The position numbers and the translations under genes were made by a program. The notes beneath the pieces were generated by a model, which searched no databases, was not told where the DNA came from, and worked only from the letters and a program-made list of their open reading frames with translations. A stretch of 64,000 nt of DNA. Origin: Saturnia japonica (lineage: Eukaryota > Arthropoda > Insecta > Lepidoptera > Saturniidae). Position 1 is the stretch's first letter, and each line of letters begins with the position of its first letter. The DNA lies in NCBI GenBank assembly GCA_033032175.1, contig CM065311.1:7309190-7373189 (forward strand), read 5' to 3'. Below are positions 985 to 47,145 of the stretch, piece by piece.

Positions 985-3285
985 GGAAATATATACATAT
1001 TCTTTATTGCACAAAAAAAAAGTACAAATGGAGGACTTAATGCTAAAAAGCATTCTCTGCCAGTCTTCCAAGGGAGCAAGGGAAAGGTATATGCAAGGTG
1101 TGCATAATGTTAAGTAAAAAAAAAGTTTATAACGATTATTAAGATTATATATTATTAAGAAGTATTCAATTGCTCCAAGTAAAACCTACGTAGCGAATAC
1201 TTGAAGGAATTTCGAGAGTTGGCCAGTTGGATATTGATAGGAAGCGAATTCCACAGTCGTGCTGCTGTAACGGCAAAGGATTGGTCGCGGAAATTAGTAT
1301 GATGACTTGGTATACTGAGAATTAAAGAATCAGAAGACCTTAGCTGTCTATTATGCGTATCCGCGAGAGATTGAAAAATTGTTTTTAAATATTTAGGGGA
1401 TTTGGGATTATTAAGTACGGAGAAAAGAAGACAAAGTATTCTTATATTCCTACGTTGCCGAATAGGTAGCCATTTCAACCTGGCTCGGTATTCAGAAACA
1501 TGATCAAACTTCCGAAGACGGAAGATAAAACGGATACAGTTATTGAGTAGACGATCAAATTTATTTAAGAGATCTTCTGAGAGGTCCAAGTAAGCAACGT
1601 CTGCATAATCCAGAAGTGGTAGAAGAAGAGTATTCACTAGGGAAATCTTAGTATTAACAGGAAGAAAGTTTTTCAAACGCATGAGAGAATGAAGAGAAGC
1701 ATAAAATTTTCTACTAACTTCCTTGACCTGGTCTGCCCAGCATAATTTAGTATCGAAGATGATACCAAGATTTTTCACCGTAGTTGAGTAAGGAATGGTA
1801 CATTTATTGTATTGAAGAGGAGTCAATGAATTAAAGTCTATTTTAGCAAGCTGTTTTGAGCTACCTATTACAATGGATTGACACTTAGTTGGATTAACAT
1901 AAATCCCGTAAGATTCAGACCAGGAAAGTAAACTTGAGAGGTCCTTGTTTAAATTATTGATTATAGAAGGAAGATTCTTTATTTCGCAATGCAGATACAA
2001 TTGCAGGTCATCAGCATAGAGATGGTAGTGGGATTGTAAAATAGGCGTAAGTAAGTTTATAAAAATAGAAAAAAGTAACGGAGAAAGAATGCCGCCTTGA
2101 GGAACACCAGCTTCTAGAGCACACCAATCTGATTCGCCATCATAGACGCGAACAGCCTGGTGACGATCTCGGAGATAAGAAGAAAACCATTCCAGTACTA
2201 AGGGTGAAAACTGAAGACAAGAAAGAGCGGCAATCAGAAGATCGTGGTCAACAGCATTAAATGCATTGCTAAAATCAATAAGGACCAATACTGTGACCAT
2301 ACCTTTTTCCATATTAGATCTAATATCTTCCGTGATCTTAAGCAGAGCAGTAGTAGTACTGTGGGCGGTTTGAAAGCCAGACTGAAATTGATTTAATAGA
2401 TCGTTGTCAGTGAGGAAAGAAGTAACTTGTTTATTGACAATAGATTCCAAAATTTTGGAAAGGAAGGGAAGAATAGAGATAGGTCGAAAATGATTAGGAG
2501 CTGTGGGATTGGTAACTTTAGAAAGCGGAACAATATAAGCATTCTTCCAAGAAGCTGGATAAATCCCCGTGGTTAAAGAAAAGTTTATGATAGAAGTCAC
2601 ACATGGGAGAATAAGCTTATAAATATATTGTAGCATGACACGACCAATATTATCACAACCCACAGCTTTGGAATTGAGAGTTAGGAATATTTTTGTAATT
2701 TCATCTTCACTAGTAGGGGAAAACTCAAACTGCTCAATCTGAGGACGGGGTAAACAAGCAAGAAATTTAAGAGTAAGATTTTTAACATTCAGTGTGAGCT
2801 TAGTAGCACTTGCAAAATGTTTATTTAACAAGTTCGAGTTAATAGGAATTTTATCGTCCCTATTCAAGGGTTTGGATAGTCCGAGCGACTTTAGAAATTT
2901 CCATAAGCAAGCAGGTGTGGATACTTCAAGTTGCTTATAAATATAGCGACGTTTGGCGTTCCGGCACAGAAGATTACATCTGTTCCTTAAGGCCTTGTAC
3001 AGCACCCAATTTTCATCAGACCTGTGACATTTGAACTTACGAAATGCACGATCACGCTTTAACATTGCCCTACGTATTGGATCTGAAAACCAAGGAGCTT
3101 GATTTTTATGGGACGAACTGGGGCATGACGGTCAAAAAGATCAACAACAGTAGTGTTCAGGAAATGTAGCTTCTCATCTACTGTAGACAGAGATTCTACC
3201 GCTGCCCAATCAATGTTAGCAGCGTCACTAAGGAGCTTATCGGTGTTCATACGGCCAAAATTTCTTTGAGAGAGAATTATATCTT
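985..3285 (-). mobile_element. 5'-truncated CR1-like non-LTR retrotransposon (LINE)
   Basis: This is the 3' part of a non-LTR retrotransposon on the minus strand. It holds most of the reverse-transcriptase ORF followed by a short 3' UTR. The 3' UTR ends near 990-1010 with an AATAAA-type signal next to a T/A run. The 5' boundary is set by a stop codon just upstream of the last homologous-looking codons, near 3285. The endonuclease domain is absent, so this is a typical 5' truncation. I saw no convincing target-site duplication. Assignment to the CR1-like group rests on the style of the reverse-transcriptase motifs and the C-terminal WNSLP region, which I recognise from memory of the family. 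Confidence 0.8.
1155..3250 (-). pseudogene. LINE reverse transcriptase, broken by one frameshift
   Basis: The ORF encodes the polymerase that copies LINE RNA into DNA at the target site. The main open frame covers 3065-1155 (636 codons). It carries motif A with the catalytic aspartate (LIDFSNAF, residue about 264), motif B (GVPQGG, about 320-325), the YADD active site (about 350-353) and a C-terminal WNSLP segment. The preceding 3250-3059 frame (APVRPIKIK) continues the same protein. Reading across the T-run at about 3103-3107 (an A-run on the coding strand), a switch of frame gives the expected WFSDPIRRAMLKRD, so one base was probably lost there. All catalytic motifs seen are intact. The N-terminal endonuclease is missing, so the copy cannot move by itself. 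Confidence 0.85.
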
Positions 3286-11779: not shown

Positions 11780-12373
11780 ACCCCCATACACCAGGTGTAA
11801 CCACGCCCGTGAAACCAACGGTGCCTCCGCAGGGGACAGGCGGCTAACTTAGCACATTCCGCACACCCGCTACGTCCACCCTCTCCTGCGGCAACTTAAG
11901 CCTAGGTCCTTTCCCTCGGTGCGGAGCCCTTGAGTCTAGCAGTCGCTCGCAAGATACAGTGACACTGCACTTTCATTCACTAGCAACCAACAAACAGCAT
12001 TACACTGCACACTACACAGGTACATAGGTTCTTAAAGGGACCTTTTTTGTACAAGTTAGACAAAAATGAACAGATCACTAAATACACATACACATGTTTC
12101 TTGCTTCCTCCCAGAAGGTAGAAATATGCATTATGTGTAATCACTTAGCTGGAATTTCTACGGATAGGGAAATTAGCCAGTTCAAGACTTAATGGCTACT
12201 ACGGCAAGAGTCCAAGCCGAAGTTCGGCAACTTTGGCACCCTTGAGCATGTTGCTACGGTTTCGCGGCTGAGTGCCATACGAGCTCTTCCCTAAGCTACG
12301 GTGAAGCTGTAAAAAACCTTCCGAGACTCCAGGGGCTCTCTGGTTAACAATATGGTTAGATAGAAAAAAAAAA
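11780..12373 (+). mobile_element. Jockey-clade LINE 3' end (family J), decayed
   Basis: This is colinear with the 3' part of the Jockey insertion at 35097-35947. It shares 'cgtccaccctctc', the 'aagcctaggtcc' block around the end of the coding frame, the 'acacaggtacataggttct' block, the 'actttggcaccct' block and the 'gtgaagctgtaaaa' block before the A tail (12364-12373). The coding tail is degenerate. It is probably an old 5'-truncated insertion; no target duplication was resolved. Confidence 0.65.
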
Positions 12374-22777: not shown

Positions 22778-22785
22778 GTTGTATC
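22778..22785 (+). repeat. 8 bp target-site duplication, left
   Basis: GTTGTATC here is repeated exactly at 24489-24496 on the other side of the element. Eight bases is the duplication length expected for the P and hAT superfamilies. Confidence 0.8.
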
Positions 22786-22815
22786 CTCAGAATACAGAAC
22801 AAACCAGAAACCGCG
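22786..22815 (+). repeat. P-type element, left terminal inverted repeat
   Basis: The 30 bases begin CTCAGAATACAGAAC and end CCGCG. They match the reverse complement of 24459-24488 at 29 of 30 positions. One more flanking base pair (C/G) would also pair, so the exact tip is ambiguous by one base; the 8 bp duplication favours the edge given. Confidence 0.85.
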
Positions 22816-22840
22816 AACGCACATAAAACTGAAGATACAA

Positions 22841-22865
22841 AAACCACTCTTAAATAGAGTGGTTT
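22841..22865. repeat. Subterminal palindrome inside the P-type element
   Basis: The arms aaaccactct (22841-22850) and agagtggttt (22856-22865) pair perfectly around a 5-base loop, 25 bases inside the left end. Drosophila P elements have subterminal inverted motifs and internal binding sites for the THAP domain, so this is a candidate binding site; that role is inference. Confidence 0.6.
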
Positions 22866-22942
22866 GACGTTGTTGCGATTAGTCACTCCTTTGTAAGTAG
22901 CGCGTCGTGACGTATTGTACAAGTGCCAATTTTAATTTTAAA

Positions 22943-24265
22943 ATGCCGTCTTGTGTTGTTCCTACATGTAAAAATGCTGCAGGGATTATAAAAAAACAGG
23001 ATGGGATCACATTTCATCTGTAAGTAGCGCATTCTAAAGTATATTTATTTAATTGTTTAATTTATTTTACATTTAGAAAATTACGCGTCCATTTTTTAAG
23101 TGTTGCCATTTTATTTTCATCGAAAATTTTACCCATTAATTTTTTTTATACTCGTGTAGAATACTTACTATTTTTGTGTATATAGAACCTTTGTAATTTT
23201 AGTTTCCCTGCTGATGAAAATAGAAAATCGGACTGGATGAAAGTCATACAAAGAGCACGGCTAGATGAGTTTTGGAAACCATCAAGCCGGAGCGTACTTT
23301 GCTCAATTCACTTTGAAGCGCAATATTTTTATGATACAAAAGGTGGTTTGAAAAGACTGAGGAAAGCAGCTAATCCAACTAAGGTAGATATAGTCATAAT
23401 AATTACTATATTTATATTGTATCCCTCCTGGTGAAAATGTTTGTCATGTATTTTGAAGTAAGGTTTTGGTTTTACGCCTGTAATCCCCGAAGGAGTATGC
23501 AAAGGTATAACAAGTATGCCCACTTTTCGTCGAGCTTATCCGTCCCTCATCGTGATAAGGGGCGAGCCTATACTGGGCGCAAATTTCAGATTCCGGGCTA
23601 ATGAAACTTCGGTGAATTAAATATATGAATAATACTAACGTTCTATTTCAGTATTTGGCCTTGACACCAGAATTTTCCGAGTTACACATAGAAACGTCTA
23701 AACCTTCGACATCGGACAATGTGCGTACCCACCTATGATAATAATGTTTAATTTATTTTTTTAATTATATTGAAAGGCAAACAAGGCACTTAATCGGTAT
23801 ACTTAGTTACAAGTAAACTAATGTAGTAAATAAACACTAGTAGTAACAGTAATAAATGTAAAATAAACTAAGTAAGGCCCATGAACATTTGCAAGCTCAG
23901 GCACAAAGTGCTATTACTAATGCGTTTCCATCCGTGAGGACTGAAATGTCATGCCTTGTACGGCAGAAATATTCTGTATTTAATTAAATTTTTTGTTAAT
24001 CTATTACATGATACAACAACATACAACTTAAGGCTTTTCATTTCAGGTTACACAACCACAATCTCCTGCGAGATCGAACTCAGAGATCGGTGATGTCAAT
24101 ATTTCTGATTTGGAATCTGTGTTTGATACGCCGAGAAAGGTCAAACTTAAATCTCAATTACGACGAAAACAATTATTTTGTGAACAACATGTTCGACGAA
24201 TGAAAACATTACAACAAAAATACAACAGACTTGCCAAGAAGTACGAATCTTTAAAAAGTATATAA
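22943..24265 (+). CDS. THAP-domain protein, 181 residues, four exons
   Basis: Exons 22943-23019, 23203-23383, 23652-23720 and 24047-24265 join into one frame. All three introns start GT and end AG; the first splits codon 26, the others fall between codons. The product begins MPSCVVPTC and carries a THAP zinc finger: C4, C9, C59 and H62 as zinc ligands, W37 and a conserved proline (FHLFP at 24-28), closing with AANPT at about 81-85. Residues 137-140 (TPRK) precede a basic, coiled-coil-like C terminus (about 145-180). THAP fingers bind DNA; in P transposase they bind the element near its ends. No catalytic domain follows, so I infer a DNA-binding repressor or accessory protein rather than a transposase. 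The start is the first ATG after a short AT-rich leader. The unbroken, spliceable frame is unusual among its decayed neighbours. The third donor (GTGCGT) is the weakest site. It could also be a domesticated host gene. Confidence 0.7.
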
Positions 24266-24290
24266 AAAAAATTAAAAAGCAATCCATGTA

Positions 24291-24300
24291 AATAAATAAA
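24291..24300 (+). promoter_or_regulatory. Poly(A) signal of the THAP gene
   Basis: AATAAATAAA begins 26 bases after the stop codon (24263-24265) and lies inside the element, so the gene carries its own 3' end signal. Confidence 0.6.
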
Positions 24301-24458
24301 TATTTTTTTAAAAATATCTTTTCTTTAGTGTTATAAGACTACCCTAAAAAGTGGGAAACCGCTCCCGAGCTAGCAACATTATGCGTATGGGAAGTGGGGC
24401 AGGTGCGGGACGTACGTATCGTTTTGGACACAGTGCAGCGTATGTAATTATTCTTGAA

Positions 24459-24488
24459 CGCGGCTTCTGGTTTGTTCTGTATTCTGAG
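24459..24488 (-). repeat. P-type element, right terminal inverted repeat
   Basis: This is the reverse complement of the left end with a single mismatch (position 25 counted from the tip). About 190 non-coding bases separate it from the THAP stop codon. Confidence 0.85.
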
Positions 24489-24496
24489 GTTGTATC
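24489..24496 (+). repeat. 8 bp target-site duplication, right
   Basis: GTTGTATC, identical to 22778-22785. Confidence 0.8.
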
Positions 24497-29283: not shown

Positions 29284-30290
29284 TTATAGGCAACGATTAT
29301 TCATTGAATTAATGAGACTGTTTATGTCATCTTGCGGTATTCGCTCCCAATGAAATTGTAGCAAATACTTTAGCTGTTGGGTTGTTGTCGCTCCGTCCAA
29401 GTCCTTCAAAACACGTCTCTGGAGCATGTCCCATGCGTGCTCGATGGGGTTGAGATATGGCGATTGTGCAGGCCAGGGCAATACCCGGATGTTCTCCGTT
29501 GCAAAGTATTCACTGGTTCGCCGAGCTGTATGTGAACGCGCATTGTCATGCATTAACCTAAAATCGGAGCCAAAGGTTTGTGCAAATGGGTAGACATAAG
29601 GTCTGAGAATATCCTCAATGTAATTTTCAGCACTCATGTTTCCATTTACAAAAACGAGCTCAGTTCGCCTGTTCTTCATAATACACGCCCAAACATAACT
29701 GTTGAGCCGCTGTATGGATGAACTTCCTGAATGCACTTGAGCCTTTCAGTATTTCCGGGCCAACGATACACTCGCACCCTTCTTGTATCAGGTTTAAACC
29801 CGAATCGCGACTCATCGGAAAACATAATTTTATCCCATTGTTCCTGGGTCCATGTTATGCGTTCTCTACACCATTCATATCGACGAGCGCGATTCCCGTG
29901 ACGTATCGGTGGGCACCTGATTGGGCGTCGAGCTCGTAGGCCGTACTCATGCAGTCGATTTCGTACAGTTTGAGGACTTACATCAACACAACTTGAAATG
30001 TGTAGCCTCAAACTTATATCTCGAGCGGTTAACATCGGCTGGTGTCTTCCAGTCAGTTGTATGTACCGGTCTTGCCGAGTGGTTGTACTCGTTTTACGGC
30101 CTGGATGCTGTTCAGCGGGTTCTCCTGTATTATTGTAGCGCTGCCAAAGACGACAAATAACACTTCTATGAATGTCAAACTGTCGAGATACCTGAGATTG
30201 ATTACTTCCCGCTTGCAACATCCCTACAGCTCTTTGCATTTCATCTGCCATCAAATGACGTCGCTGCATGACGTAAAGAATATCTAACAA
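29284..30290 (-). pseudogene. Tc1-like transposase (DD34E), one frameshift
   Basis: The enzyme cuts the element out and joins it into TA sites. The first frame (30290-29676) holds the N-terminal helix-turn-helix DNA-binding region (residues about 15-110), a GRKTSTT linker resembling the GRPR motif, and the first catalytic Asp in FSDESRF (about residue 159). The second frame (29736-29284) continues with WACIMKNRR, the second Asp in MHDNARSHTA and the Glu in LNPIEHAWD, 34 residues apart, and ends NNRCL. The break is at about 29693-29694, where one base appears lost: ATG-TTT-GGG is read, whereas the continuing frame needs one more base before TTTGG. Both halves are otherwise open, together near the usual 330-345 residues. 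No other lesion is visible. Confidence 0.9.
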
Positions 30291-32745: not shown

Positions 32746-32763
32746 TGACGCATAATATTTATA

Positions 32764-33100
32764 TTAATCAGTGTTCAATTTATTGTATTAATACACCTCG
32801 CCGCCCGCACCACCCCACCAACGCACTCGTGTAAGCCTATAGTTGTTCTCACATGTCGTACCTACTTCCTACAGCTTTCCAATTTGCTTGATGTTCATGC
32901 TAACTGCGCCACTTTTTAGATTCACAGCGTGAAATTATATAGCCTATTACTTACTCCAGCATTTTATAAATTTTCAAATCTAACTGATAAATTCCTGAAA
33001 CTTCCCTCCCCATATGCGAAAACTCACAAAATTCGAACTCTTTTTATCGTATATCCCTTTTTTAACTATTGCTGTTTAATATCTAAATCATATACAATTA
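32764..33100 (-). repeat. Dispersed repeat family G inside copy 1
   Basis: It shares 'cactcgtgtaagcctatagt', 'tttccaatttgcttgatgtt' and 'gtgaaattatatagcc' with 54.86-55.05 kb and, more weakly, with 8.17-8.40 kb. Its equivalent in copy 2 is 40065-40400. Confidence 0.5.
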
Positions 33101-33679
33101 GCAGTTTCAATAAAAACTCCCATTGTAATCAACAACAAGCCGTAGGACGTACGTTCTTATTTATAGTATGTAATGAAGACACTAATGACGTCACAGATGA
33201 AAGCAAGTATAGATGAAAAATATCGGGAGCTGTGCTAACGAGACGGCAACTTTGAAACCTAGTAGTATCACTACCTATCTCGTATTGTATTAAAACATTT
33301 CGCGCGTCTTAATTACAAAGTTACTTTGAACTCCCGCCTTAAATAGAATTTTTAATTAAGCCACATTTCTTTATAAAACAAAAACAATTCTTGCACCCGT
33401 TATTATAATAGATATTTAAATATATATATACACATGAATAAATATTTTATCTACTTTTTAATGAATGACTAACTAACTGCTTATTATATGATTTCTTAAT
33501 TTCGATACTTTTTGTTATATTGTTAATTAAGAATATATTTATTAACTAATATCATCGAATACAAATTTAATAATAAATAATAGGTGTCTGTTTTTGTACA
33601 ATAATATAGTTTTAAACCAAATTCTAGCCATGCTTATAGTAGACTATGTAGTTGTTATTTTACTGGCAATTTAATGTAA

Positions 33680-33891
33680 TTTAGTCAGATCGCGACTTCT
33701 TTGCAATCGCGGCATCAGCCCAAGCCGAGGTTCAGCCACTTTGGCACCCTTGCACGCTTGTTGCCCACGCTTTTGCGGCTGTGTGCTTTCAGCGCTCGTC
33801 CCCGAGCCCGGTAAAGCTGTAAAAGCCATCAGCGGCTCTGTATTTGGATAGAGTCCCTCAGGCTAACAGTAAGGTCAGTAACAAAAAAAAA
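33680..33891 (+). repeat. Jockey family J 3' end inside copy 1
   Basis: 'agccgaggttcagccacttt', 'cggtaaagctgtaaaagcca' and 'aggctaacagtaaggtcagt' are followed by an A tail (33882-33891). It is older than the 35097-35947 insertion, because it is shared by both copies (40985-41193). Confidence 0.65.
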
Positions 33892-35062
33892 GGATTTACT
33901 TAAGAATTAGTACAATTCATCGTATTAAAATATTAAATATTTTTATATCTGAAAGTTGCATAGATTATGAAAAACCTCAAATTGTTCGCAGTTAATTTTA
34001 ATTCAACAAAATATACTCTCATTACATTAATTGCTAACATTGAATTAAAAAAAAAAACATACATTGAGGTTTTGCTTTCACTCTAAAGCACTGATACGTT
34101 CCAATTGAGATTAATGGCGGCTTTAAATATTAAGTGCAGCACTGTTACATTGTTTTTATGGGTCTTTTTATGTTTTAATAGCGTCATCCGACTAAAAGTA
34201 AATAGGTAATGTTTTTACATTTAACTTACAATGTTCGATAAAAGTTTAGTATATTTAATATATCTAAGATATTTTAGTTTTGAATACAAGTATATAAACA
34301 TCTCCCTATCTAAAGCACTTTAAATCTTCTAAACAATTAATAAAATTGAAGTGTCTGTTTGTAATGTCAAAATAGCTTTTTACTAAATGAATATGAAAGT
34401 ATATAGATACATATGTGTTAGCGACGCATAGGTCTAAGCGTAATGATACGAGAATAACAATTGTAAATATAATTTGTAGGGATGAATCATTTGTACGAAC
34501 AATCAATAATTTAATGTTTCTAATGCTTTGAATATGTTAGTATAGCGTGTAGGTATATAAGAACAATATATAAGTTATGAAAATGTTTGTAATTTAATAG
34601 AAATAATCACTTACAAGTACTAAAATCATATATCGTCGATAATTCATATTATATAGAAGTTGTATGTAATGTTTTGTGTTATATAGGTAAATTGGCCTTC
34701 TCTATATGTTTTATAATGTTTGTAACATCAAATAGTGTGTAAATAACGAGTTTCAAGCTGTTTTAAAGTTGCAATGTTTAACGCTTTATATCTACCATGT
34801 TTATTAATCTATAATGTTAAAGTTAGTGTTTTTGGATAGGTATTTGTGTCTACATTAATGTGAAATAGTTTTTATAATAATTGAATAATTGTAATTAGAG
34901 ATATTAACGATTTATTGTATTCTGCATACAAGTAATAATAATAATAGATAGAGACAGCGATAGTGCAACCACAGCGCATTACCGCGGTTACCGGACCACA
35001 CCCAAGTTTGGTAATGAGCAGTACGGATAGAGACGCCATCGTCCGTCTCGCTCTCCGGCAAA

Positions 35063-35072
35063 TAATATAAAA
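35063..35072 (+). promoter_or_regulatory. TATA-like box in copy 1 only
   Basis: An AATATAAAAGG-like box (around 35063-35072) lies about 25 bases before a possible start region next to GC-rich DNA. It could be a core promoter, perhaps of an LTR-like element, but no start site can be shown. Copy 2 lacks this segment. Confidence 0.3.
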
Positions 35073-35086
35073 GGCACACTACTGGG

Positions 35087-35096
35087 GCCAACGGGC
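35087..35096 (+). repeat. 10 bp target-site duplication of the Jockey insertion, left
   Basis: GCCAACGGGC is repeated exactly at 35948-35957, directly after the A tail. Confidence 0.85.
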
Positions 35097-35947
35097 TCCT
35101 TCGATACATGCCTACGTTAAACAGCTCTCCCGTTCGTATTTCGACACCGCGTCGAACCACGCGAATCCGTTAATAAAAACAGCCGCCACTTATGTTCCGG
35201 CACCCACGGACATCCGGTGCAAACGCCGGCCGCGCAATATTTTTATTGATCCCGACGATCACATCGAAAATTCGAATAAATATTACACATCCGTCTCTCC
35301 AAACAGAGCGTGCCAGCGCCCACGCTCGCGTAACCACCGTTCTCTCCGCAGAGGGCGGGCGGTCAATTTCGCTCCAGCACACCCGTCACGTCCACCCTCT
35401 CTAGCGGTAACCCAAGCCTAGGTCCGTTCCTCGGTGTGAAACCCTTGGGTCAGGCAACCGCCCGCGCGATACAAGTGACACTGTACGTGCATCACTTAGC
35501 TACCTACATACAACACTACACACGTATGAACATACACACGTGCACACCACACAGGTACATAGGTTCTGTGAGGGACCTTTTTTTTTCTTTTTTTACGCTA
35601 GTTAGTTAGCGCTAGTTAGTGTAGAAACATTCCGATTATTGAATACACATACGCACGGTTCCTTCCTTCCTCCCAGGAGGAAGGGAACGTGCCTATGTGT
35701 ATATTTAGTTAGCTCGAATCGTAGGTGTAGGGATTCGAATAGATCGCGACCTATTTGCGAACGCGAGGACCGCCCGAGCCGAGGTCCGGCCACTTTGGCA
35801 CCCTCGTGCGAGTCGTCCACAAAACTTTCGCGGCTGAGTGCCCTCTGCGCTCGCCCCCAAGTCCGGTGAAGCTGTAAAAGCCGCAGCGGCTTTAGGGCCC
35901 CTAAGGCTAACAGTGTAGTCAGTTCTAAAAAAAAAAAAAAAAAAAAA
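35097..35947 (+). mobile_element. Jockey-clade LINE, 5'-truncated, with A tail and target duplication
   Basis: The insertion is 851 bp: 35098-35421 codes for the end of the reverse transcriptase ORF, 35422-35926 is 3' UTR and 35927-35947 is an A tail of 21 bases. Exact 10 bp duplications flank it. It is the reference copy in this window for family J (other 3' ends at 11.8, 21.8, 31.4, 33.7, 41.0 and 56.6 kb). It is present in copy 1 of the large duplication and absent from copy 2. Confidence 0.9.
35098..35421 (+). CDS. C-terminal end of a Jockey-clade ORF2 (partial)
   Basis: An open frame of 107 codons and a stop, entering from the truncation point. It reads ...IHAYVKQLSRSYFDTASNHANPLI and later RPRNIFIDPDD. 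This is the tail of Jockey-type ORF2 proteins, downstream of the reverse transcriptase domain, where 'FDxAxxHPNPLI' and 'IDPDDPI' are typical. There is no start codon and no catalytic part, so it is not a functional gene, but the frame has no stops, which fits a recent insertion. Confidence 0.75.
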   Translation, partial: PSIHAYVKQLSRSYFDTASNHANPLIKTAATYVPAPTDIRCKRRPRNIFIDPDDHIENSNKYYTSVSPNRACQRPRSRNHRSLRRGRAVNFAPAHPSRPPSLAVTQA

Positions 35948-35957
35948 GCCAACGGGC
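35948..35957 (+). repeat. 10 bp target-site duplication of the Jockey insertion, right
   Basis: GCCAACGGGC, identical to 35087-35096. Confidence 0.85.
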
Positions 35958-36477
35958 ACACACGGGTGCCACAAGCTGAAGAATCAAGACTCAAGACTCA
36001 AGAAACTGGAAGAAACAGTACCCAGAAGATAGTACCAACAAATTGTATTGTGTCTTGAAGAATACAGCAAATTTTATTGTGGTGCCTGTGTGTCATTTTG
36101 CATCTTCACTAAGTGTTCAACCCGCCAGCGACCCAGTCCATTCCGCTCCGTGCTACGTCATCGCCGCGCCTACCAGCAGGCACCTCACTGCGTGTGTGTA
36201 CCTTGATGTTTCGCCCTCTTCACGCCTAGTAGTTTCGGGTGTGAGCAGGGTCGGTCGCACGTAGTGAGAGGGGCTCGCACGCACTCGTTTCCAGACAGCT
36301 GGTTACCGTAGCGTGTTATCCGCCGTCGGTAATACAGAGTACGAGGGAATCGTTTCCGTCGCGTTCGCGCCCTCGGTGCGCGGTCCCGCTCTGTATAGAA
36401 TGACGTAGCACATTTGTATAAGGGCATACGCACGCGCCCTTTTTAATATGTATCTGACAAAACCCCCATTTTTAAAA

Positions 36478-36855
36478 TTTTTGTCTGTCTGTTCGATCCG
36501 GGTAATCTCCGAAACGGTTGAACCAATTTTGACGGAACGTTCACTGGTATATAAGAGGTTATAAGGAGTAACTTAGGCTACTTTTATTATAGAAAAATAA
36601 TTAGGATTCATAGCAAATAAAAAAAAAATCATTGTGGATCAATTCGGGCGCTTAAATAGCTTACGTTGAGTTAACCATAAGTGATATAGCAAATTAATAT
36701 ATACATAGACATATGTCTATCTTCTAAGGAACACCCACAATAAGGATTTATGTCTTTCAAATAGCCGGGAGCGGGGGAGCAATGTTCGCGAGTGTGCCCG
36801 ATCGAAGGCATTCTGTAGTCCACGTGAGCGAAGCCGCGAGCACAGCAAGTTATGA
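36478..36855 (+). repeat. Retroposon family R inside copy 1
   Basis: Same block order as 28355-28775, from 'tgtctgtctgttcgatccgg' to 'gtccacgtgagcgaagccgc' and an end in 'gagcacagcaagt'. Its equivalent in copy 2 is 42860-43230. Confidence 0.6.
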
Positions 36856-38840
36856 AATATAATCCAATATATTAATCATTTTTCAGACGTTATAATTATA
36901 TGTTTTTTTGGTAGTTTTTTTACTGCAATAATGTTTACGTATTAACGCTGAGCAAGTGTTTAAACTGTAGAGTTTTGACCATATTTCAGTTTAAAAATAA
37001 GGATCTCTATATATCTTCTACCACAACTCATATTTTTTACGATAGCTATGGATACCAGAAAATCAAACAATAACAAGTAAATTTTACAAATACCTAGACT
37101 ATAAGACTATCGAAACTTGGACATTTTTAGTCGAAAGGGATTTTAATCTACTGGCGATTTTATCAAAAACCGGTACGAATTACGAACCTTGTTTTCCGAT
37201 TTTATGCTCGATTTGAATTTCAACTTAATTTTTTCACTGACGGTTGGTACAAGTAAACCCAAGTAAATAAAATTTCTATTATCATAATGAAACACATAAA
37301 TCAAAAGAAAGAAGAGTGTTATGAAATGGCGTTTTCAAATATTGCAATCAATCTCAATCTTTATTTTGTGAAAATAATAAATGTGACGCGTCTCTCAACG
37401 GTATTTTTTGACTATAAACAATCTTTTCTGATAGCCTTCCGCATAGGTTCTAATAAATAAAAAGCGAATGACAATCACACGAATATGGAAATAAAAAAAC
37501 CTTATAAATTAAACGAATGGTTAAGTAAACATTTTCATTTAAAAACTACTTAACTTATACATATTTAATTATTTATGTACAATTGAAATTCTATCCTATA
37601 CGATAGTTAATGGTAGTTAATCAACCATAGCGCCTAATCATAATATAATATAGCTATGAACCATCGTATCAATAAAACAAATTTATTTTGGTAAATATGA
37701 GCTCAATCGGTCAAATTGTTCAGAAGTTATACGATCGCTAAATAAATGTATAAAATATGAAAAATTTCCCACTGCAAATTATATATTATCCGCTGGTTTT
37801 ATAGGTGCTTGAAAACGTTGGCAGATCATATGAACATAAAAAAAGAACATTTATGAATATAACATAAAATATGATATTTTAATGATTATGATTAGTGTTT
37901 AAGTGAAACTCGTAACCACCACTTGACACATATCGGTGTTTATCTCGGCGGGTTAATTTTCCGGGTCAGGCGCCCGAGGCGGGCGGCCGCGGACCGCTCG
38001 GATGAATTCAATCAGAAGCAACAACCTAAGCAATCTCGACGCCGCGCCGCGCTACTGGAAACGATTGCGGACGAGTGTGTATTGAGTTGACCGCTAGACG
38101 AGTATCCGACAAGTGCCCTCGTCTCTACCGCTAACTCCACAACCAACAAAATTGTTTATACAACAATATCTGGTTCAAGAAATACAAATATAATCTTCTC
38201 GTCGACGAGCACCGAAACAAACTGAGATCCGAAATTAAATTCTGTGAAGTTCATTTAGCTGAGTACTTGGTAAACTTCTATACACAAAGTGCCCGTCGTA
38301 AAATATAATACGGAATCTACAAAACCGGTGTTTGAGTTTTGTTTTGTCTCGGTTAAACTGCGGGGTTACCGTCATAATAATATAATATTGTGAATATAAG
38401 TGGCGGCCACCATTTACTTGGAGCTGCGGGCAACGGTTTAAGTGGAACAGACAGCGGACCACTTAACCTTCGTCTTGTATTTAAAGAGAAGGTCAACACT
38501 GAACTTTAGCATAATGCCAATTGGACTTGGGTTACGCGAATTTTTTAAACATTTAACTGGTGTGAAATGTTACATAAAAATATTGCAACTATAAGTATAG
38601 ATTAAACAAAATTTAATTTTATTACCCTTACGTTTTTCTATAAACTGAAAAATAATTTATACTTAGGTGTGTCTGAGTGTACAAACAATAAAGTGATAGA
38701 TAATTAATTTTCTTTTACCATAAAATCTATATTTGTTTTGCCTTAAATGCGTTCCTGTACAATTAATTATAGTATGATTAAACTTTGATTCGTTGTGCGT
38801 ATGCTCATGATGGTTTCTAAATTAGTAGAAACATCGTACA

Positions 38841-38852
38841 ATAGATGGCGCG
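38841..38852 (+). promoter_or_regulatory. AGATGGCGC motif (CTCF-like), copy 1
   Basis: ATAGATGGCGCG resembles the core of the insect CTCF site (AGRTGGCGC). It is a single short match, so chance is quite possible. The same site lies in copy 2 at 45228-45239. Confidence 0.2.
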
Positions 38853-38905
38853 TTGATAGTTTTTTTTTTCTAAGATAATGGGAACGATCCAAAAGTTATT
38901 TTATA

Positions 38906-39418
38906 TTATGAACGATTCAAAAGCTTTAATGGTTTCAAATTTATTAAAAAAGAATTTTTGGCAACCCTAGATTGAGATCGCGAATTACGCGGCCCTCGCC
39001 TAACGGAGACGGGGCTTGACCCGCGCGATTGGCTAGTCGGGACAGGGGGCGTGGCCGTAGGCGCGGCCACGGCCCCGGATGACGCGGCGGACAGGCGCGT
39101 AACGCTGCGCGTGGGACGTTTGGGCGCGACGCCGACTGGCGCGGCGCCAGTGGATGTAACGGTCGCGGCCGTGACGTCATCGGCCGCCTTGCTACCTGAA
39201 GCGGCCGCCTCGCTACCTGAAACGGCCTCATGACGGGTCGCGGTCGCAGCGGTGCGACGCACGCAGGCGTTCTCAGGTAGATTACGGTATTCCTCGTCTA
39301 GAGAGGGACACCGTAATACGACGAAATTTTGATAGCGCTGGTATTGAAACTCCAGCGCTTTCATCCTGGCTTGCAACTTGCCTATGCAAGTGGCCAGGTC
39401 GGCAACGTTATTTGCCAT
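38906..39418 (-). CDS. Possible ORF1 N terminus, truncated (unrecognised)
   Basis: 170 codons, of which those down to about 38960 lie in the spacer and the last dozen run into copy 1. It begins MANNVADLATCIGKLQARMK, a likely short amphipathic or coiled-coil segment (about residues 1-30), then a low-complexity Ala/Thr/Ser/Pro region and a basic end (RRGPRNSRSQSRV). This pattern fits the disordered N-terminal part of a retrotransposon ORF1 (RNA-binding protein), but the zinc knuckles that would prove it are missing. High-GC codon use differs strongly from the AT-rich surroundings. The start is chosen as the first ATG after the leader. Confidence 0.4.
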   Translation of the reverse strand: MANNVADLATCIGKLQARMKALEFQYQRYQNFVVLRCPSLDEEYRNLPENACVRRTAATATRHEAVSGSEAAASGSKAADDVTAATVTSTGAAPVGVAPKRPTRSVTRLSAASSGAVAAPTATPPVPTSQSRGSSPVSVRRGPRNSRSQSRVAKNSFLINLKPLKLLNRS

Positions 39419-40062: not shown

Positions 40063-40984
40063 TATTAATCAGTGTTCAATTTATTCTATTAATACACCTC
40101 GCCGCCCGCGCCACCCCACCAACGCACTCGTGTAAGCCTATAGTTGTTCTCACATGTCGTTCCTACTTCCTACAGCTTTCCAATTTGCTTGATGTTCATG
40201 CTAACTGCGCCACTTTTTAGATTCACAGCGTGAAATTATATAGCCTATTACTTACTCCTGCATTTTATAAATTTTCAAATCTAACTGATAAATTCCTGAA
40301 ACTTCCCTCCCCATATGCGAAAACTCACAAAATTCGAACTCTTTTTATCGTATATCCCTTTTTTAACTATTGCTGTTTAATATCTAAATCATATACAATT
40401 AGCAGTTTCAATAAAAACTCCCATTGTAATTAACAACAAGCCGTAGGACGTACGTTCTTATTTATAGTATGTAATGAAGACACTAATGACGTCACAGATG
40501 AAAGCAAGTATAGATGAAAAATATCGGGAGCTGTGCTAACGAGACGGCAACTTTGAAACCTAGTAGTATCACTACCTATCTCGTATTGTATTAAAACATT
40601 TCGCGCGTCTTAATTACAAAGTTACTTTGAACTCCCGCCTTAAATAGAATTTTTAATTAAGCCACATTTCTTTATAAAACAAAAACAATTCTTGCACCCG
40701 TTATTATAATAGATATTTAAATATATATATACACATGAATAAATATTTCATCTACTTTTTAATGAATTGACTAACTAACTGATTATTATATGATTTCTTA
40801 ATTTCGATACTTTTTGTTATATTGTTAATTAAAAATATATTTATTAACTAATATCATCGAATACAAATTTAATAATAAATAATAGGTGTCTGTTTTTATA
40901 CAATAATATAGTTTTAAACCAAATTCTAGCCATGCTTATAGTAGACTATGTAGTTGTTATTTTACTGGCAATTTAATGTAATTT

Positions 40985-41193
40985 AGTCAGATCGCGACTT
41001 CTTTGCAATCGCGGCATCAGCCCAAGCCGAGGTTCAGCCACTTTGGCACCCTTGCACGCTCTTTGCCCACGCTTTCGCGGCTTTGTGCTTTCAGCGCTCG
41101 TCCCCGAGCCCGATAAAGCTATAAAAGCCATCAGCGGCTCTGTATTTGGATATAGTCCCTCAGGCTAACAGTAAGGTCAGTAACAAAAAAAAA
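40985..41193 (+). repeat. Jockey family J 3' end inside copy 2
   Basis: Equivalent of 33680-33891; ends in an A run near 41184-41193. Confidence 0.65.
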
Positions 41194-42859
41194 GGATTTA
41201 CTTAAGAATTAGTTAGTACAATTCATCGTATTAAAATATTAAATATTTTCTGAAAGTTGCATAGATTATGAAAAACCTCAAATTGTTCGCAGTTAATTTT
41301 AATTCAACAAAATATACTCTCATTACAATTGCTAACATTGAATTTAAAAAAAAAAACATACATTGAGGTTTTGCTTTCACTCTAAAGCACTGATACGTTC
41401 CAATTGAGATTAATGGCGGCTTTAAATATTAAGTGCAGCACTGTTACATTGTTTTTATGGGTCTTTTTATGTTTTAATAGCGTCATCCGACTAAAAGTAA
41501 ATAGGTAATGTTTTTACATTTAACTTACAATGTTCGATAAAAGTTTAGTATATTTAATATATCTAAGATATTTTAGTTTTGAATACAAGTATATAAACAT
41601 CTCCCTATCTAAAGCACTTTAAATCTTCTAAACAATTAATAAAATTGAAGTGTCTGTTTGTAATGTCAAAATAGCTTTTTACTAAATGAATATGAAAGTA
41701 TATAGATACATATGTGTTAGCGACGCATAGGTCTAAGCGTAATGATACGAGAATAACAATTGTAAATATAATTTGTAGGGATGAATCATTTGTACAACAA
41801 TCAATAATTTAATGTTTCTAATGCTTTGAATATGGTAGTATAGCGTGTAGGTATATAAGAACAATATATAAGTTATGAAAATGTTTGTAATTTAATAGAA
41901 ATAATCACTTACAAGTACTAAAATCATATATCGTCGATAATTCATATTATATAGAAGTTGTATGTAATGTTTTGTGTTATATAGATAAATTGGCCTTCTC
42001 TATATGTTTTATAATGTTTGTAACATCAAATAGTGTGTAAATAACGAGTTTCAAGCTGTTTTAAAGTTGCAATGTTTAACGCTTTATATCTACCATGTTT
42101 ATTAACCTATAATGTTAAAGTTAGTGTTTTTGGATAGGTATTTGTGTCTACATTAATGTGAAATAGTTTTTATAATAATTGAATAATTGTAATTAGAGAT
42201 ATTAACGATTTATTGTATTCTGCATACAAGTAATAATAATAATAGATAGAGACAGCGATAGTGCAACCACAGCGCATTACCGCGGTTACCGGACCACACC
42301 CATGTTTGGTAATGAGCAGTACGGATAGAACGGGCACACACGGGTGCCACAAGCTGAAGAATCAAGACTCAAGACTCAAGAAACTGGAAGAAACAGTACC
42401 CAGAAGATAGTACCAACAAATTGTATTGTGTCTTGAAGAATACAGCAAATTTTATTGTGGTGCCTGTGTGTCATTTTGCATCTTCACTAAGTGTTCAACC
42501 CGCCAGCGACCCAGTCCATTCCGCTCCGTGCTACGTCATCGCCGCGCCTACCAGCAGGCACCTCACTGCGTGTGTGTACCTTGATGTTTCGCCCTCTTCA
42601 CGCCTAGTAGTTTCGGGTGTGAGCAGGGTCGGTCGCACGTAGTGAGAGGGGCTCGCACGCACTGGTTTCCAGACAGCTGGTTACCGTAGCGTGTTATCCG
42701 CCGTCGGTAATACAGAGTACGAGGGAATCGTTTCCGTCGCGTTCGCGCCCTCGGTGCGCGGTCCCGCTCTGTATAGATTGACGTAGCACATTTGTATAAG
42801 GGCATACGCACGCGCCCTTTTTAATATGTATCTGACAAAACCCCCATTTTTAAAATTTT

Positions 42860-43230
42860 TGTCTGTCTGTTCGATCCGGGTAATCTCCGAAACGGTTGAA
42901 CCAATTTTGACGGAACGTTCACTGGTATATAAGAGGTTATAAGGAGTAACTTAGGCTACTTTTGTTATAGAAAAATAATTAGGATTCATAGCAAATAAAA
43001 AAAAATCATTGTGGATCAATTCGGGCGCTTAAATAGCTTACGTTGAGTTAACCATAAGTGATATAGCAAATTAATATATACATAGACATATGTCTATCTT
43101 CTAAGGAACACCCACAATAAGGATTTATGTCTTTCAAATAGCCGGGAGCGGGGGAGCAATGTTCGCGAGTGTGCCCGATCGAAGGCATTCTGTAGTCCAC
43201 GTGAGCGAAGCCGCGAGCACAGCAAGTTAT
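42860..43230 (+). repeat. Retroposon family R inside copy 2
   Basis: Equivalent of 36478-36855, with a handful of differences. Confidence 0.6.
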
Positions 43231-45344
43231 GAAATATAATCCAATATATTAATCATTTTTCAGACGTTATAATTATATGTTTTTTTGGTAGTTTTTTTAC
43301 TGCAATAATGTTTACGTATTAACGCTGAGCAAGTGTTTAAACTGTAGAGTTTTGACCATATTTCAGTTTAAAAATAAGGATCTCTATATATCTTCTACCA
43401 CAACTCATATTTTTTACGATAGCTATGGATACCAGAAAATCAAACAATAACAAGTAAATTTTACAAATACCTAGACTATAAGACTATCGAAACTTGGACA
43501 TTTTTAGTCGAAAGGGATTTTAATCTACTGGCGATTTTATCAAAAACCGGTACGAATTACGAACCTTGTTTTCCGATTTTATGCTCGATTTGAATTTCAA
43601 CTTAATTTTTTCACTGACGGTTGGTACAAGTAAACCCAAGTAAATAAAATTTCTATTATCATAATGAAACACATAAATCAAAAGAAAGAAGAGTGTTATG
43701 AAATGGCGTTTTCAAATATTGCAATCAATCTCAATCTTTATTTTGTGAAAATAATAAATGTGACGCGTCTCTCAACGGTATTTTTTGACTATAAACAATC
43801 TTTTCTGATAGCCTTCCGCATAGGTTCTAATAAATAAAAAGCGAATGACAATCACACGAATATGGAAATAAAAAAACCTTATAAATTAAACGAATGGTTA
43901 AGTAAACATTTTCATTTAAAAACTACTTAACTTATACATATTTAATTATTTATGTACAATTGAAATTCTATCCTATACGATAGTTAATGGTAGTTAATCA
44001 ACCATAGCGCCTAATCATAATATAATATAGCTATGAACCATCGTATCAATAAAACAAATTTATTTTGGTAAATATGAGCTCAATCGGTCAAATTGTTCAG
44101 AAGTTATACGATCGCTAAATAAATGTATAAAATATGAAAAATTTCCCACTGCAAATTATATATTATCCGCTGGTTTTATAGGTGCTTGAAAACGTTGGCA
44201 GATCATATGAACATAAAAAAAGAACATTTATGAATATAACATAAAATATGATATTTTAATGATTATGATTAGTGTTTAAGTGAAACTCGTAACCACCACT
44301 TGACACATATCGGTGTTTATCTCGGCGGGTTAATTTTCCGGGTCAGGCGCCCGAGGCGGGCGGCCGCGGACCGCTCGGATGAATTCAATCAGAAGCAACA
44401 ACCTAAGCAATCTCGTCGCCGCGCCGCGCTACTGGAAACGATTGCGGACGAGTGTGTATTGAGTTGACCGCTAGACGAGTATCCGACAAGTGCCCTCGTC
44501 TCTACCGCTAACTCCACAACCAACAAAATTGTTTATACAACAATATCTAGTTCAAGGAATACAAATATAATCTTCTCGTCGACGAGCACCGAAACAAACT
44601 GAGATCCGAAATTAAATTCTGTGAAGTTCATTTAGCTGAGTACTTGGTAAACTTCTATACACAAAGTGCCCGTCGTAAAATATAATACGGAATCTACAAA
44701 ACCGGTGTTTGAGTTTTGTTTTGTCTCGGTTAAACTGCGGGGTTACCGTCATAATAATATAATATTGTGAATATAAGTGGCGGCCACCATTTACTTGGAG
44801 CTGCGGGCAACGGTTTAAGTGGAACAGACAGCGGACCACTTAACCTTCGTCTTGTATTTAAAGAGAAGGTCAACACTGAACTTTAGCATAATGCCAATTG
44901 GACTTGGGTTACGCGAATTTTTTAAACATTTAACTGGTTTAACTGGTGTGAAATGTTACATAAAAATATTGCAACTAAAAGTATAGATTAAACAAAATTT
45001 AATTTTATTACCCTTACGTTTTTCTATAAACTGAAAAATAATTTATACTTAGGTGTGTCTGAGTGTACAAACAATAAAGTGATAGATAATTAATTTTCTT
45101 TTACCATAAAATCTATATTTGTTTTGCCTTAAATGCGTTCCTGTACAATTAATTATAGTATGATTAAACTTTGATTCGTTGTGCGTATGCTCATGATGGT
45201 TTCTAAATTAGTAGAAACATCGTACAATAGATGGCGCGTTGATAGTTTTTTTTTTCTAAGATAATGGGAACGATCCAAAAGTTATTTTATATTATGAACG
45301 ATTCAAAAGCTTTAATGGTTTCAAATTTATTAAAAAAGAATTTT

Positions 45345-47145
45345 CGGTTTAAAGTGTCTAGATTAAACGATTAATTTTCTTACAAATAAATGTAAATAAT
45401 TATACATTAGGTTTCCACCCACGACTTCGCTCACGTAATTTATAAGATGTGTACAGTTTTATTTTATTTTATTTTAGTTAAATTTATATGTTGTTTAGTT
45501 ATAAATTTGAACCGAAAACGGTTATTTCCATCACAAATTTGTAACCCTCTTTCACACTATTTGGGTATAATTTTGAAAAACACTTAAATAAGTGTTTCAT
45601 TAATTGTGTCGATAACTAATAATAACAAGTTTGAAATAAATCTAAACCGGAAAACATTATCTTGATGACAAACTTTACCACCGCTATTCATCCCCTTAGG
45701 GGTGAATTCCATGAAATCCCTTATTAAACGATGCCTACAATATAAAGTAATATCCTTTCCAAGTTTTAAAAGTTTAAAATTACTTTGAGTTCGACTATGA
45801 TGAGTCAAGATCAAATCAAAATTAAAAATATTTTATTCAATGTAAGCCCTATGAAGCACTTATGAATATTCATTTCCTTTTATATACTCATAGGAAAATT
45901 CAAAATGTTGAAGCGAAAATTTACATAGATATCAACTAATCTGCTACTATCATGCATTCATGCCAGTTACTAACATGCTTATGAGTAATCACTGCTTTAA
46001 CAGCAACTGGTAATCAATTATCTTAAGTGTCAGCGAGTCTTTTTAGAGGCAGTGACGACGCTCAATAGATTGACTCAATTATTTTACTTTACCGAGTGTA
46101 TCTCTGTCTGTAACCTTAATATAGCTACCATTGATGACAATGTATGTATGTTCACAACTGATGACTGTTAGTTTTAAACCTTTTACTGTTCATCGCTGGC
46201 CTTAACCTTAGAGTATTCAGCAATGCTCCGAATTTTTTAATGATTGAATTTTGAAATAGTGTCAATTTTAAATGTTAAGCAGATAAATACGATCAATCAG
46301 CGTATCCCTACTACAGACCTTCCTAAATCTCTCGAGAATCCAACGTTTGTTCACATTGAACGCAAGGTCAATCTTGTTTGTACAACAAAAAAACCTTTTT
46401 TATCTTTATAATAGCACTTTTGAAAGAGGTAATTTCAAGATATAAATTGAAGTCTGATATTTAAAGATTCATTTTCTTAAAATTAGTTTGAAACCATTTA
46501 CTAAATAAATGTGTAAATTTTACATCTATTGAAATGCAAAAGATAAAAGTAATCCAAAAGCGAGTCATCCCTGAGCTTTTGACGCTTCTCCATGAAAGTC
46601 ATAAACATTACTTAAATAGAACAAAAACAAAAGTCCAAACAGACGTAAACAACGATAATGAAAAGGCTCGTTTAATTAAGAAACATTAAGAAATTAGAGC
46701 TTTCTGTAAGATTAAAAACATAGTCCGGTGAATTATGAGGATTCGACTTTTACGATCCCTATCAAATAACAACGCAATTCCCACAGAATAAATCTAAAAA
46801 TGTTTCTTTATTGATTACGTAAGATGTTTTCGAGAAAAAGACTTCATGTTTAGTGCTATAAAGATTTGTTGGATGGTGCAGTAAAACCTTATACAGTTCA
46901 ATAAAAATATGTTAGTATATCTGCCGAATAGAGACCGACCACCTACATACGATGTGGATTTACGAGTAGTCGTGAGTCGTGACAGTATATCTCGATATTC
47001 TGCTTATAACCAGATCAAACAAAATACAACTTGATAGTGTTGGCTATATGTTCAAATATTCTGTGATATAAATATCATATAACATAAAAGATTTTTTTTT
47101 TAATCCAGGCGCATGTTATATGAATGAATGTTAAAGTAATGAATG
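45345..47145. other. AT-rich intergenic DNA
   Basis: A retroposon-like terminus ('ccacccacgacttcgctcac') lies near 45416-45435. Otherwise nothing is recognised. Confidence 0.4.

What the first reader, a model, noticed from the sequence alone, without database searches (positions are those of the whole stretch)
22786..24488. A P-type transposon that encodes only a THAP DNA-binding protein, with its splice sites intact
Seen: 30 bp inverted ends with one mismatch, an exact 8 bp flanking repeat, and four exons with GT...AG introns that join into an unbroken 181-codon frame containing the C2CH ligands of a THAP finger and a basic, coiled-coil-like tail, plus an internal poly(A) signal. Known: P elements have a THAP finger, about 31 bp ends and 8 bp duplications, and internally deleted Drosophila P elements (KP type) make repressor proteins that keep the DNA-binding and dimerisation parts. 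Inference: this is a self-contained repressor-coding, non-autonomous P-type element. If present in many copies with the frame preserved, it would be a transposon family built around self-regulation.
Basis: partly seen in the sequence, partly recalled or inferred. Interest (0 to 1): 0.85.

Follow-up and report, generated by a model that had tools for sequence, protein, structure and literature searches.

The report
Internally deleted P transposon, KP-like
This is a jumping-gene copy, probably from a moth or butterfly genome, that has lost its cutting enzyme but can still encode the part that grips DNA; fruit flies have well-known elements of the same kind, so it is interesting mainly as a relative of those.

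Summary
A 1,703-bp element (22786-24488) has 30-bp inverted ends with one mismatch and an exact 8-bp duplication. Four exons join into 181 codons with a THAP finger (Pfam E 2.8e-15) and a basic coiled-coil tail. The protein is the N-terminal piece of a P transposase: two long lepidopteran proteins carry the same N-terminus (33-37% over all 181 residues) followed by RNase H and GTP-binding domains, one also by the P-type HTH. Closer partial relatives (67-68% to exon 4) run on into the HTH, one also into the catalytic domains. Here homology ends at 24283; the stop at 24263 lies inside it, where relatives have Leu or Ile. The simplest reading is an internally deleted, non-autonomous P element of the Drosophila KP kind. 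Repressor activity is plausible but untested. Short THAP/coiled-coil proteins ending near the same place are annotated in several Lepidoptera, so an old THAP-only lineage stays open. The decisive test, copies and an autonomous partner in the same genome, could not be made: the genome search was unanswered in 32 of 32 attempts. New member of a known kind; moderate interest.

The parts
22778..22785 (.). left target-site duplication GTTGTATC
   Evidence: exact match to 24489-24496
22786..22815 (+). 5' terminal inverted repeat, 30 bp
   Evidence: 29 of 30 complementary to 24459-24488
22841..22865 (.). subterminal palindrome AAACCACTCT-TAAAT-AGAGTGGTTT, bp 56-80 from the 5' end; candidate THAP/transposase binding site (inference)
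   Evidence: found; 52 of 5000 first-order Markov resamples of the 157-bp 5' region hold a 9-bp palindrome with loop up to 10; Drosophila P site lies at bp 53-63 of the 5' end (PMC3688188, passages)
22943..23019 (+). exon 1: THAP C4, C9
   Evidence: tblastn P0001 88% over 22943-23020
23020..23202 (+). intron 1, GT...AG
23203..23383 (+). exon 2: rest of the THAP finger with C59, H62
   Evidence: tblastn P0001 78% over 23204-23383
23384..23651 (+). intron 2, GT...AG
23652..23720 (+). exon 3: linker
   Evidence: tblastn P0001 and P0002 over 23616-23723, which begins 36 bases before the predicted edge
23721..24046 (+). intron 3, GT...AG
24047..24262 (+). exon 4 coding part: basic coiled coil
   Evidence: tblastn P0001 from 24047; AlphaFold model of relative P0001 has one helix 132-181, pLDDT 86-98 in the blocks 131-180
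24263..24265 (+). TAA stop, at a column where relatives have Leu (7 of 8) or Ile (1 of 8)
24266..24283 (+). coiled-coil homology beyond the stop; homology to P transposase ends here, so the deletion breakpoint is placed at or just after it
   Evidence: tblastn, E up to 0.01
24291..24300 (+). two overlapping AATAAA poly(A) signals inside the element
24459..24488 (-). 3' terminal inverted repeat, 30 bp
24489..24496 (.). right target-site duplication GTTGTATC

Best explanation
It is a non-autonomous copy of a P-superfamily transposon that lost everything behind the coiled coil (HTH, RNase H, GTP-binding and C-terminal parts) by internal deletion, and that was moved to this site by transposase from another copy. 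SHOWN: inverted ends, 8-bp duplication, spliceable THAP plus coiled-coil frame, homology to P transposase N-termini, absence of detectable catalytic domains. INFERRED: its mRNA, ended by the internal poly(A) signal, makes a dimerising THAP protein that binds the subterminal sites of its own and related elements, perhaps the 22841-22865 palindrome, and competes with full transposase for the ends and for the promoter region, as the Drosophila KP protein does. The repression would be a by-product of which part survived the deletion, not necessarily a selected function.
For: Ends and duplication. THAP finger; fold matches for the model of relative P0001 include 3kde, the THAP domain of Drosophila P transposase on DNA (probability 1.00, E 7.3e-3), after human THAP2 and THAP1. 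Long P transposases with the same N-terminus: P0012 (33%, 704 aa) and P0013 (37%, 752 aa) over 100% of the 181 residues, with RNase H and GTP-binding Pfam domains in both and the P-type HTH in P0013. P0012 matches solved P transposase 6p5a at E 5.2e-20. P0006 and P0017 are 67% and 68% identical to exon 4 and continue without a break into the HTH domain, P0017 also into RNase H and GTP-binding domains. None of 20 retrieved proteins matches the window beyond 24283 at E up to 0.01. KP-type repressors keep the DNA-binding part and lack full transposase (PMC12393704, PMC7776569, passages).
Against: No second copy, no autonomous partner with these ends and no transcript has been seen; the genome search did not complete. 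The end sequence was not matched to any P element. The Drosophila P site AT[AC]CACTTAA (recalled motif) does not occur in the element; its core CACTTAA occurs twice, but both times inside introns, so the binding site is a guess. The stop removes about six residues of the helix modelled in P0001, so dimerisation may be weaker. Repression is wholly untested.
Confidence: 0.6

Rival explanations
1. A passive internal-deletion derivative: same origin, but the THAP frame is open only because the copy is young, and the protein is not made or does nothing.
For: An extra stop inside the homologous coiled coil fits early decay; near-identical ends and an exact duplication fit a young copy in which a frame would be open by default.
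Against: All three introns and 181 codons are intact, and a leader region and a poly(A) signal are present; similar short proteins are annotated in other Lepidoptera.
Confidence: 0.28
2. An old, self-maintaining THAP-only P lineage of Lepidoptera, kept because its protein regulates the family.
For: 6 of 7 short proteins that have both a Pfam THAP match and the KTLQQ-like motif end 21-34 residues after that motif, near the end of the helix modelled in P0001; P0001 departs from P0002, P0006 and P0017 right after NNRFI, about where homology ends in the window.
Against: The search took only proteins of about 100-317 aa, which favours short ones; gene models may be cut; P0003 and P0007 diverge from the family before the end; P0002 ends 67 residues after the motif and P0014 (THAP and motif, 398 aa) 140 after; the motif pattern was widened after a first narrower one. 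No DNA of those loci was seen, so no shared junction is shown.
Confidence: 0.1
3. A host THAP gene (domesticated P neogene) that happens to lie between inverted repeats.
For: THAP plus coiled coil is also a layout of host THAP proteins (recalled; the listing of PMC6402169 names a conserved coiled coil in the human family); a fish THAP6-like protein is among the hits at E 7.7e-5.
Against: The gene lies wholly inside 30-bp inverted ends with an exact 8-bp duplication; its best long relatives are P transposases.
Confidence: 0.02

Closest known systems
Drosophila melanogaster KP element (207-aa KP repressor)
   Same: Internally deleted P element that keeps ends, THAP finger and dimerisation region and loses the catalytic part (PMC7776569 and PMC12393704, passages)
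   Different: End sequences and intron layout differ from Drosophila P as I recall it (no call compared them); repression is known for KP, untested here
Long lepidopteran P transposases P0013 (Chilo suppressalis) and P0012 (Spodoptera exigua)
   Same: Same N-terminal layout over all 181 residues, 37% and 33% identity
   Different: They go on into GTP-binding and RNase H domains, P0013 also into a P-type HTH, all undetected here. As gene models they are themselves not complete: Pfam finds no HTH in P0012 and no RNase H C-terminal part in P0013
Anopheles gambiae P elements and P-MITEs
   Same: 27-31 bp inverted ends, 8-bp duplications, THAP-bearing transposases, non-autonomous derivatives (PMC1562414, abstract and two sections read)
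   Different: Their MITEs show no similarity to the internal part of the P masters; this element keeps a coding frame
Helicoverpa armigera P elements
   Same: P superfamily reported in a noctuid: table row 15 sequences, 12 full-length (column reading inferred), 6103 copies (PMC7764229, passages)
   Different: No THAP-only element in the passages seen; 'THAP' does not occur in its main text

Membership tests
P superfamily (any member, including non-autonomous) | 8-bp target-site duplication | tested here: met
   GTTGTATC, exact
P superfamily (any member, including non-autonomous) | Terminal inverted repeats of about 30 bp | tested here: met
   30 bp, one mismatch; 27-31 bp in Anopheles P
P superfamily (any member, including non-autonomous) | Coding sequence homologous to P transposase | tested here: met
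   N-terminus matches P0012 and P0013 over 100% of 181 residues, exon 4 matches P0017
P superfamily (any member, including non-autonomous) | Subterminal transposase/THAP binding sites | tested here: inconclusive
   Palindrome at bp 56-80 is in the right place, but the Drosophila motif (recalled) is absent
P superfamily (any member, including non-autonomous) | Dispersed copies sharing the ends | not tested
   Genome search unanswered in 32 of 32 attempts (first, last); no other copy within the 64-kb window
Autonomous P element | HTH, split RNase H and GTP-binding domains | tested here: not met
   Of Pfam families only THAP passes its cut-off on the spliced protein; no tblastn match (E up to 0.01) of 20 proteins lies after 24283
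KP-type repressor-coding P element | Internal deletion that keeps DNA-binding and dimerisation parts in frame | tested here: met
   coiled coil modelled on relative P0001, not on the window protein
KP-type repressor-coding P element | Protein represses transposition | not testable with these tools
   Needs a bench assay
KP-type repressor-coding P element | Ends shared with an autonomous element in the same genome | not tested
   Genome search unanswered (first, last)

The most novel reading that the evidence does not exclude
THAP plus coiled-coil P elements without a catalytic part form a long-lived, mobile lineage across Lepidoptera with one shared deletion junction at the end of the dimerisation helix. 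Their protein is kept by selection as a trans-acting regulator of P elements, so the selfish unit is the repressor itself.
Probability: 0.1. Interest if true: 0.65.

Novelty: new member of a known kind. Interest (0 to 1): 0.32.

Why it matters
Repressor-coding deletion derivatives are best known to me from the Drosophila P element, where non-autonomous copies may halt an invasion without piRNA defence (PMC12393704, abstract and other passages). A counterpart with intact introns in what is probably a lepidopteran would let the question of whether such derivatives recur and are selected be tested in an order where P elements can be numerous (6103 copies in H. armigera, PMC7764229).

Tried and rejected
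Host THAP gene: rejected because the gene sits inside inverted ends with an exact 8-bp duplication. The other strand of the element: nothing notable seen by eye in three-frame translation. A second copy of the element or of its flanks elsewhere in the window: none. Viral and prokaryote collections: no exact copy of the 23-base end in viral contigs and no relatives of the proteins in viral contigs or genome contigs, as expected for an insect element. Drosophila P binding motif (recalled): absent. Rfam: nothing at gathering scores in the window. Bacterial-type promoter and terminator scan: not informative for an insect, apart from pointing again to the palindrome.

An exon boundary as the cause of the shared protein ends: P0002, P0006, P0010 and P0017 read through that place, so it is not a general exon boundary, but it could be one in other lineages.

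Full report
What is there. Its two ends are 30-bp inverted copies with one mismatch, flanked by an exact 8-bp direct repeat, GTTGTATC. The repeat finder reports 31 bp because the last base of the left duplication happens to pair with the first base of the right one. The first 23 bases of the end occur only at the two ends in the window, with no match in 100 shuffles, and the element has no second copy in the window.

The gene. Exons 22943-23019, 23203-23383, 23652-23720 and 24047-24262 with GT...AG introns give 181 codons and a TAA. Of the Pfam families only THAP passes its cut-off, E 2.8e-15, with ligands C4, C9, C59 and H62. The joins are not only arithmetic: P0001 from Spodoptera exigua covers 100% of the query at 75% identity, and P0003 (Parnassius apollo, 64%) and P0004 (Ostrinia furnacalis, 50%) cover 96% and 100%. 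tblastn of P0001 gives edges within one base of the predicted ones for exons 1 and 2 and at the start of exon 4; its exon 3 match begins 36 bases early and ends 3 bases late, and some other proteins read a little into introns. An AATAAA begins 26 bases after the stop. There is no transcript evidence.

What the protein is. A search admitting long proteins gave 5 hits among 197 candidates: P0012 (704 aa, S. exigua, 33%) and P0013 (752 aa, Chilo suppressalis, 37%) cover all 181 residues; the other three (Colias P0014 and two eel proteins) cover 48%. P0012 has TNP-like RNase H N- and C-terminal and GTP-binding domains but no HTH match; P0013 has the P-type HTH, the RNase H N-terminal part, about half of the GTP-binding domain and the THAP9 C-terminal domain. 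P0012 matches the solved Drosophila P transposase 6p5a at E 5.2e-20. Nearer kin exist as fragments without organism names: P0006 (231 aa) and P0017 (403 aa) are 67% and 68% identical to exon 4 and continue unbroken into the HTH domain, P0017 also into RNase H and GTP-binding domains. So the 181-residue protein is the THAP and coiled-coil part of a P transposase.

Where it ends. Of 20 proteins compared with the window by tblastn (E up to 0.01), 8 align across the stop codon (P0001, P0002, P0004, P0005, P0006, P0013, P0014, P0017), 6 of them to 24283 and 2 to 24277; none aligns after 24283. At the stop column they have Leu (7 of 8) or Ile (1 of 8). The stop is therefore a change within retained coding sequence, a few codons before the end of homology, and the rest of the transposase is missing. 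In the model of P0001 (mean pLDDT 80.1, pTM 0.47; 15 sequences) one helix spans 132-181, so the break falls about where the dimerisation helix ends. By position, the window's stop shortens that helix by about six residues. The THAP part of the model matches human THAP2 and THAP1 and Drosophila P THAP on DNA, 3kde; the C-terminal helix had no useful match. The window protein itself was not modelled.

How it would work. The ends and the duplication imply that a P-type transposase put this copy here; it shows no catalytic domain of its own. If expressed, the protein could dimerise and bind P-type subterminal DNA. A perfect palindrome with 10-bp arms and a 5-base loop lies at 22841-22865, bp 56-80 from the 5' end. 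The Drosophila P site lies at bp 53-63 and the Galileo site near bp 70 (PMC3688188, abstract and passages). In 52 of 5000 resampled 5' regions a 9-bp palindrome arose by chance, so this is suggestive, not compelling. The Drosophila motif as I recall it is absent, and its CACTTAA core occurs only in introns 1 and 3. In Drosophila, truncated P proteins that keep the DNA-binding part act as repressors (PMC7776569, PMC12393704, passages seen). The KP analogy is functional inference; nothing here tests it.

Is it more than a deletion derivative? Among the 11 hits, 7 have both a Pfam THAP match and the KTLQQ-like motif of the coiled coil (P0001-P0005, P0007, P0009). Six of these 7 end 21-34 residues after the motif; P0002 ends 67 after it. 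Left out of that count: P0010 (46 after, no THAP match), P0006 (154 after, no THAP match), and P0008 and P0011, which lack the motif. From, P0014 has THAP and motif and ends 140 after it. P0001 parts from its longer relatives right after NNRFI, about where homology ends in the window. This fits a shared or recurrent THAP-only form. It also fits cut gene models and the length filter of the search (about 100-317 aa), and P0003 and P0007 diverge earlier. Without the DNA of those loci I give the lineage hypothesis 0.1.

What could not be done. Copy number, the autonomous partner and dN/dS are therefore unknown.

Literature. Seven searches of the held library listed no paper whose title or abstract start names a THAP-only P element in Lepidoptera. 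Four of these lists were cut (25 of 43, 15 of 33, 15 of 64 and 15 of 31 papers shown). Beyond listings I saw passages or sections of six papers (PMC1562414, PMC7776569, PMC12393704, PMC10298559, PMC7764229, PMC3688188). P elements as such are reported from Helicoverpa armigera (table row 15, 12 and 6103, read as sequences, full-length and copies; PMC7764229). Most subscription literature is absent from that library.

Verdict. The repressor role and the family 'built around self-regulation' remain inference.

Noticed in passing
22892-22903 and 23019-23030: The 12 bases at the intron 1 donor (TGTAAGTAGCGC) recur exactly 127 bp upstream in the 5' leader. If used as a donor, the upstream copy would skip the start codon and exon 1; a pseudo-donor with a regulatory role is conceivable.
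   Followed up: no
32762-38961 and 40063-45347: A direct segmental duplication of 5-6 kb, 98.5% and 99.4% identical over its two parts.
   Followed up: partly
35032-35950: About 920 bp present in only one copy of that duplication, with a poly(A) run of about 20 near its end, so probably a retroposed insertion made after the duplication; no clear target-site duplication seen. Part of it (35320-35936) is 67.6% similar to 11801-12373.
   Followed up: partly
1155-3065 (-): Open 636-codon frame with a reverse transcriptase domain (RVT_1, E 1e-33), probably of a LINE-type element.
   Followed up: no
29284-30290 (-): Tc1/mariner-like transposase in two overlapping frames (HTH_Tnp_Tc3_2 and DDE_3), so probably broken by a frameshift.
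   Followed up: no
23829, 23851, 23862: Three further AATAAA words inside intron 3: if used, transcripts would end before the coiled-coil exon and encode little more than the THAP finger.
   Followed up: no
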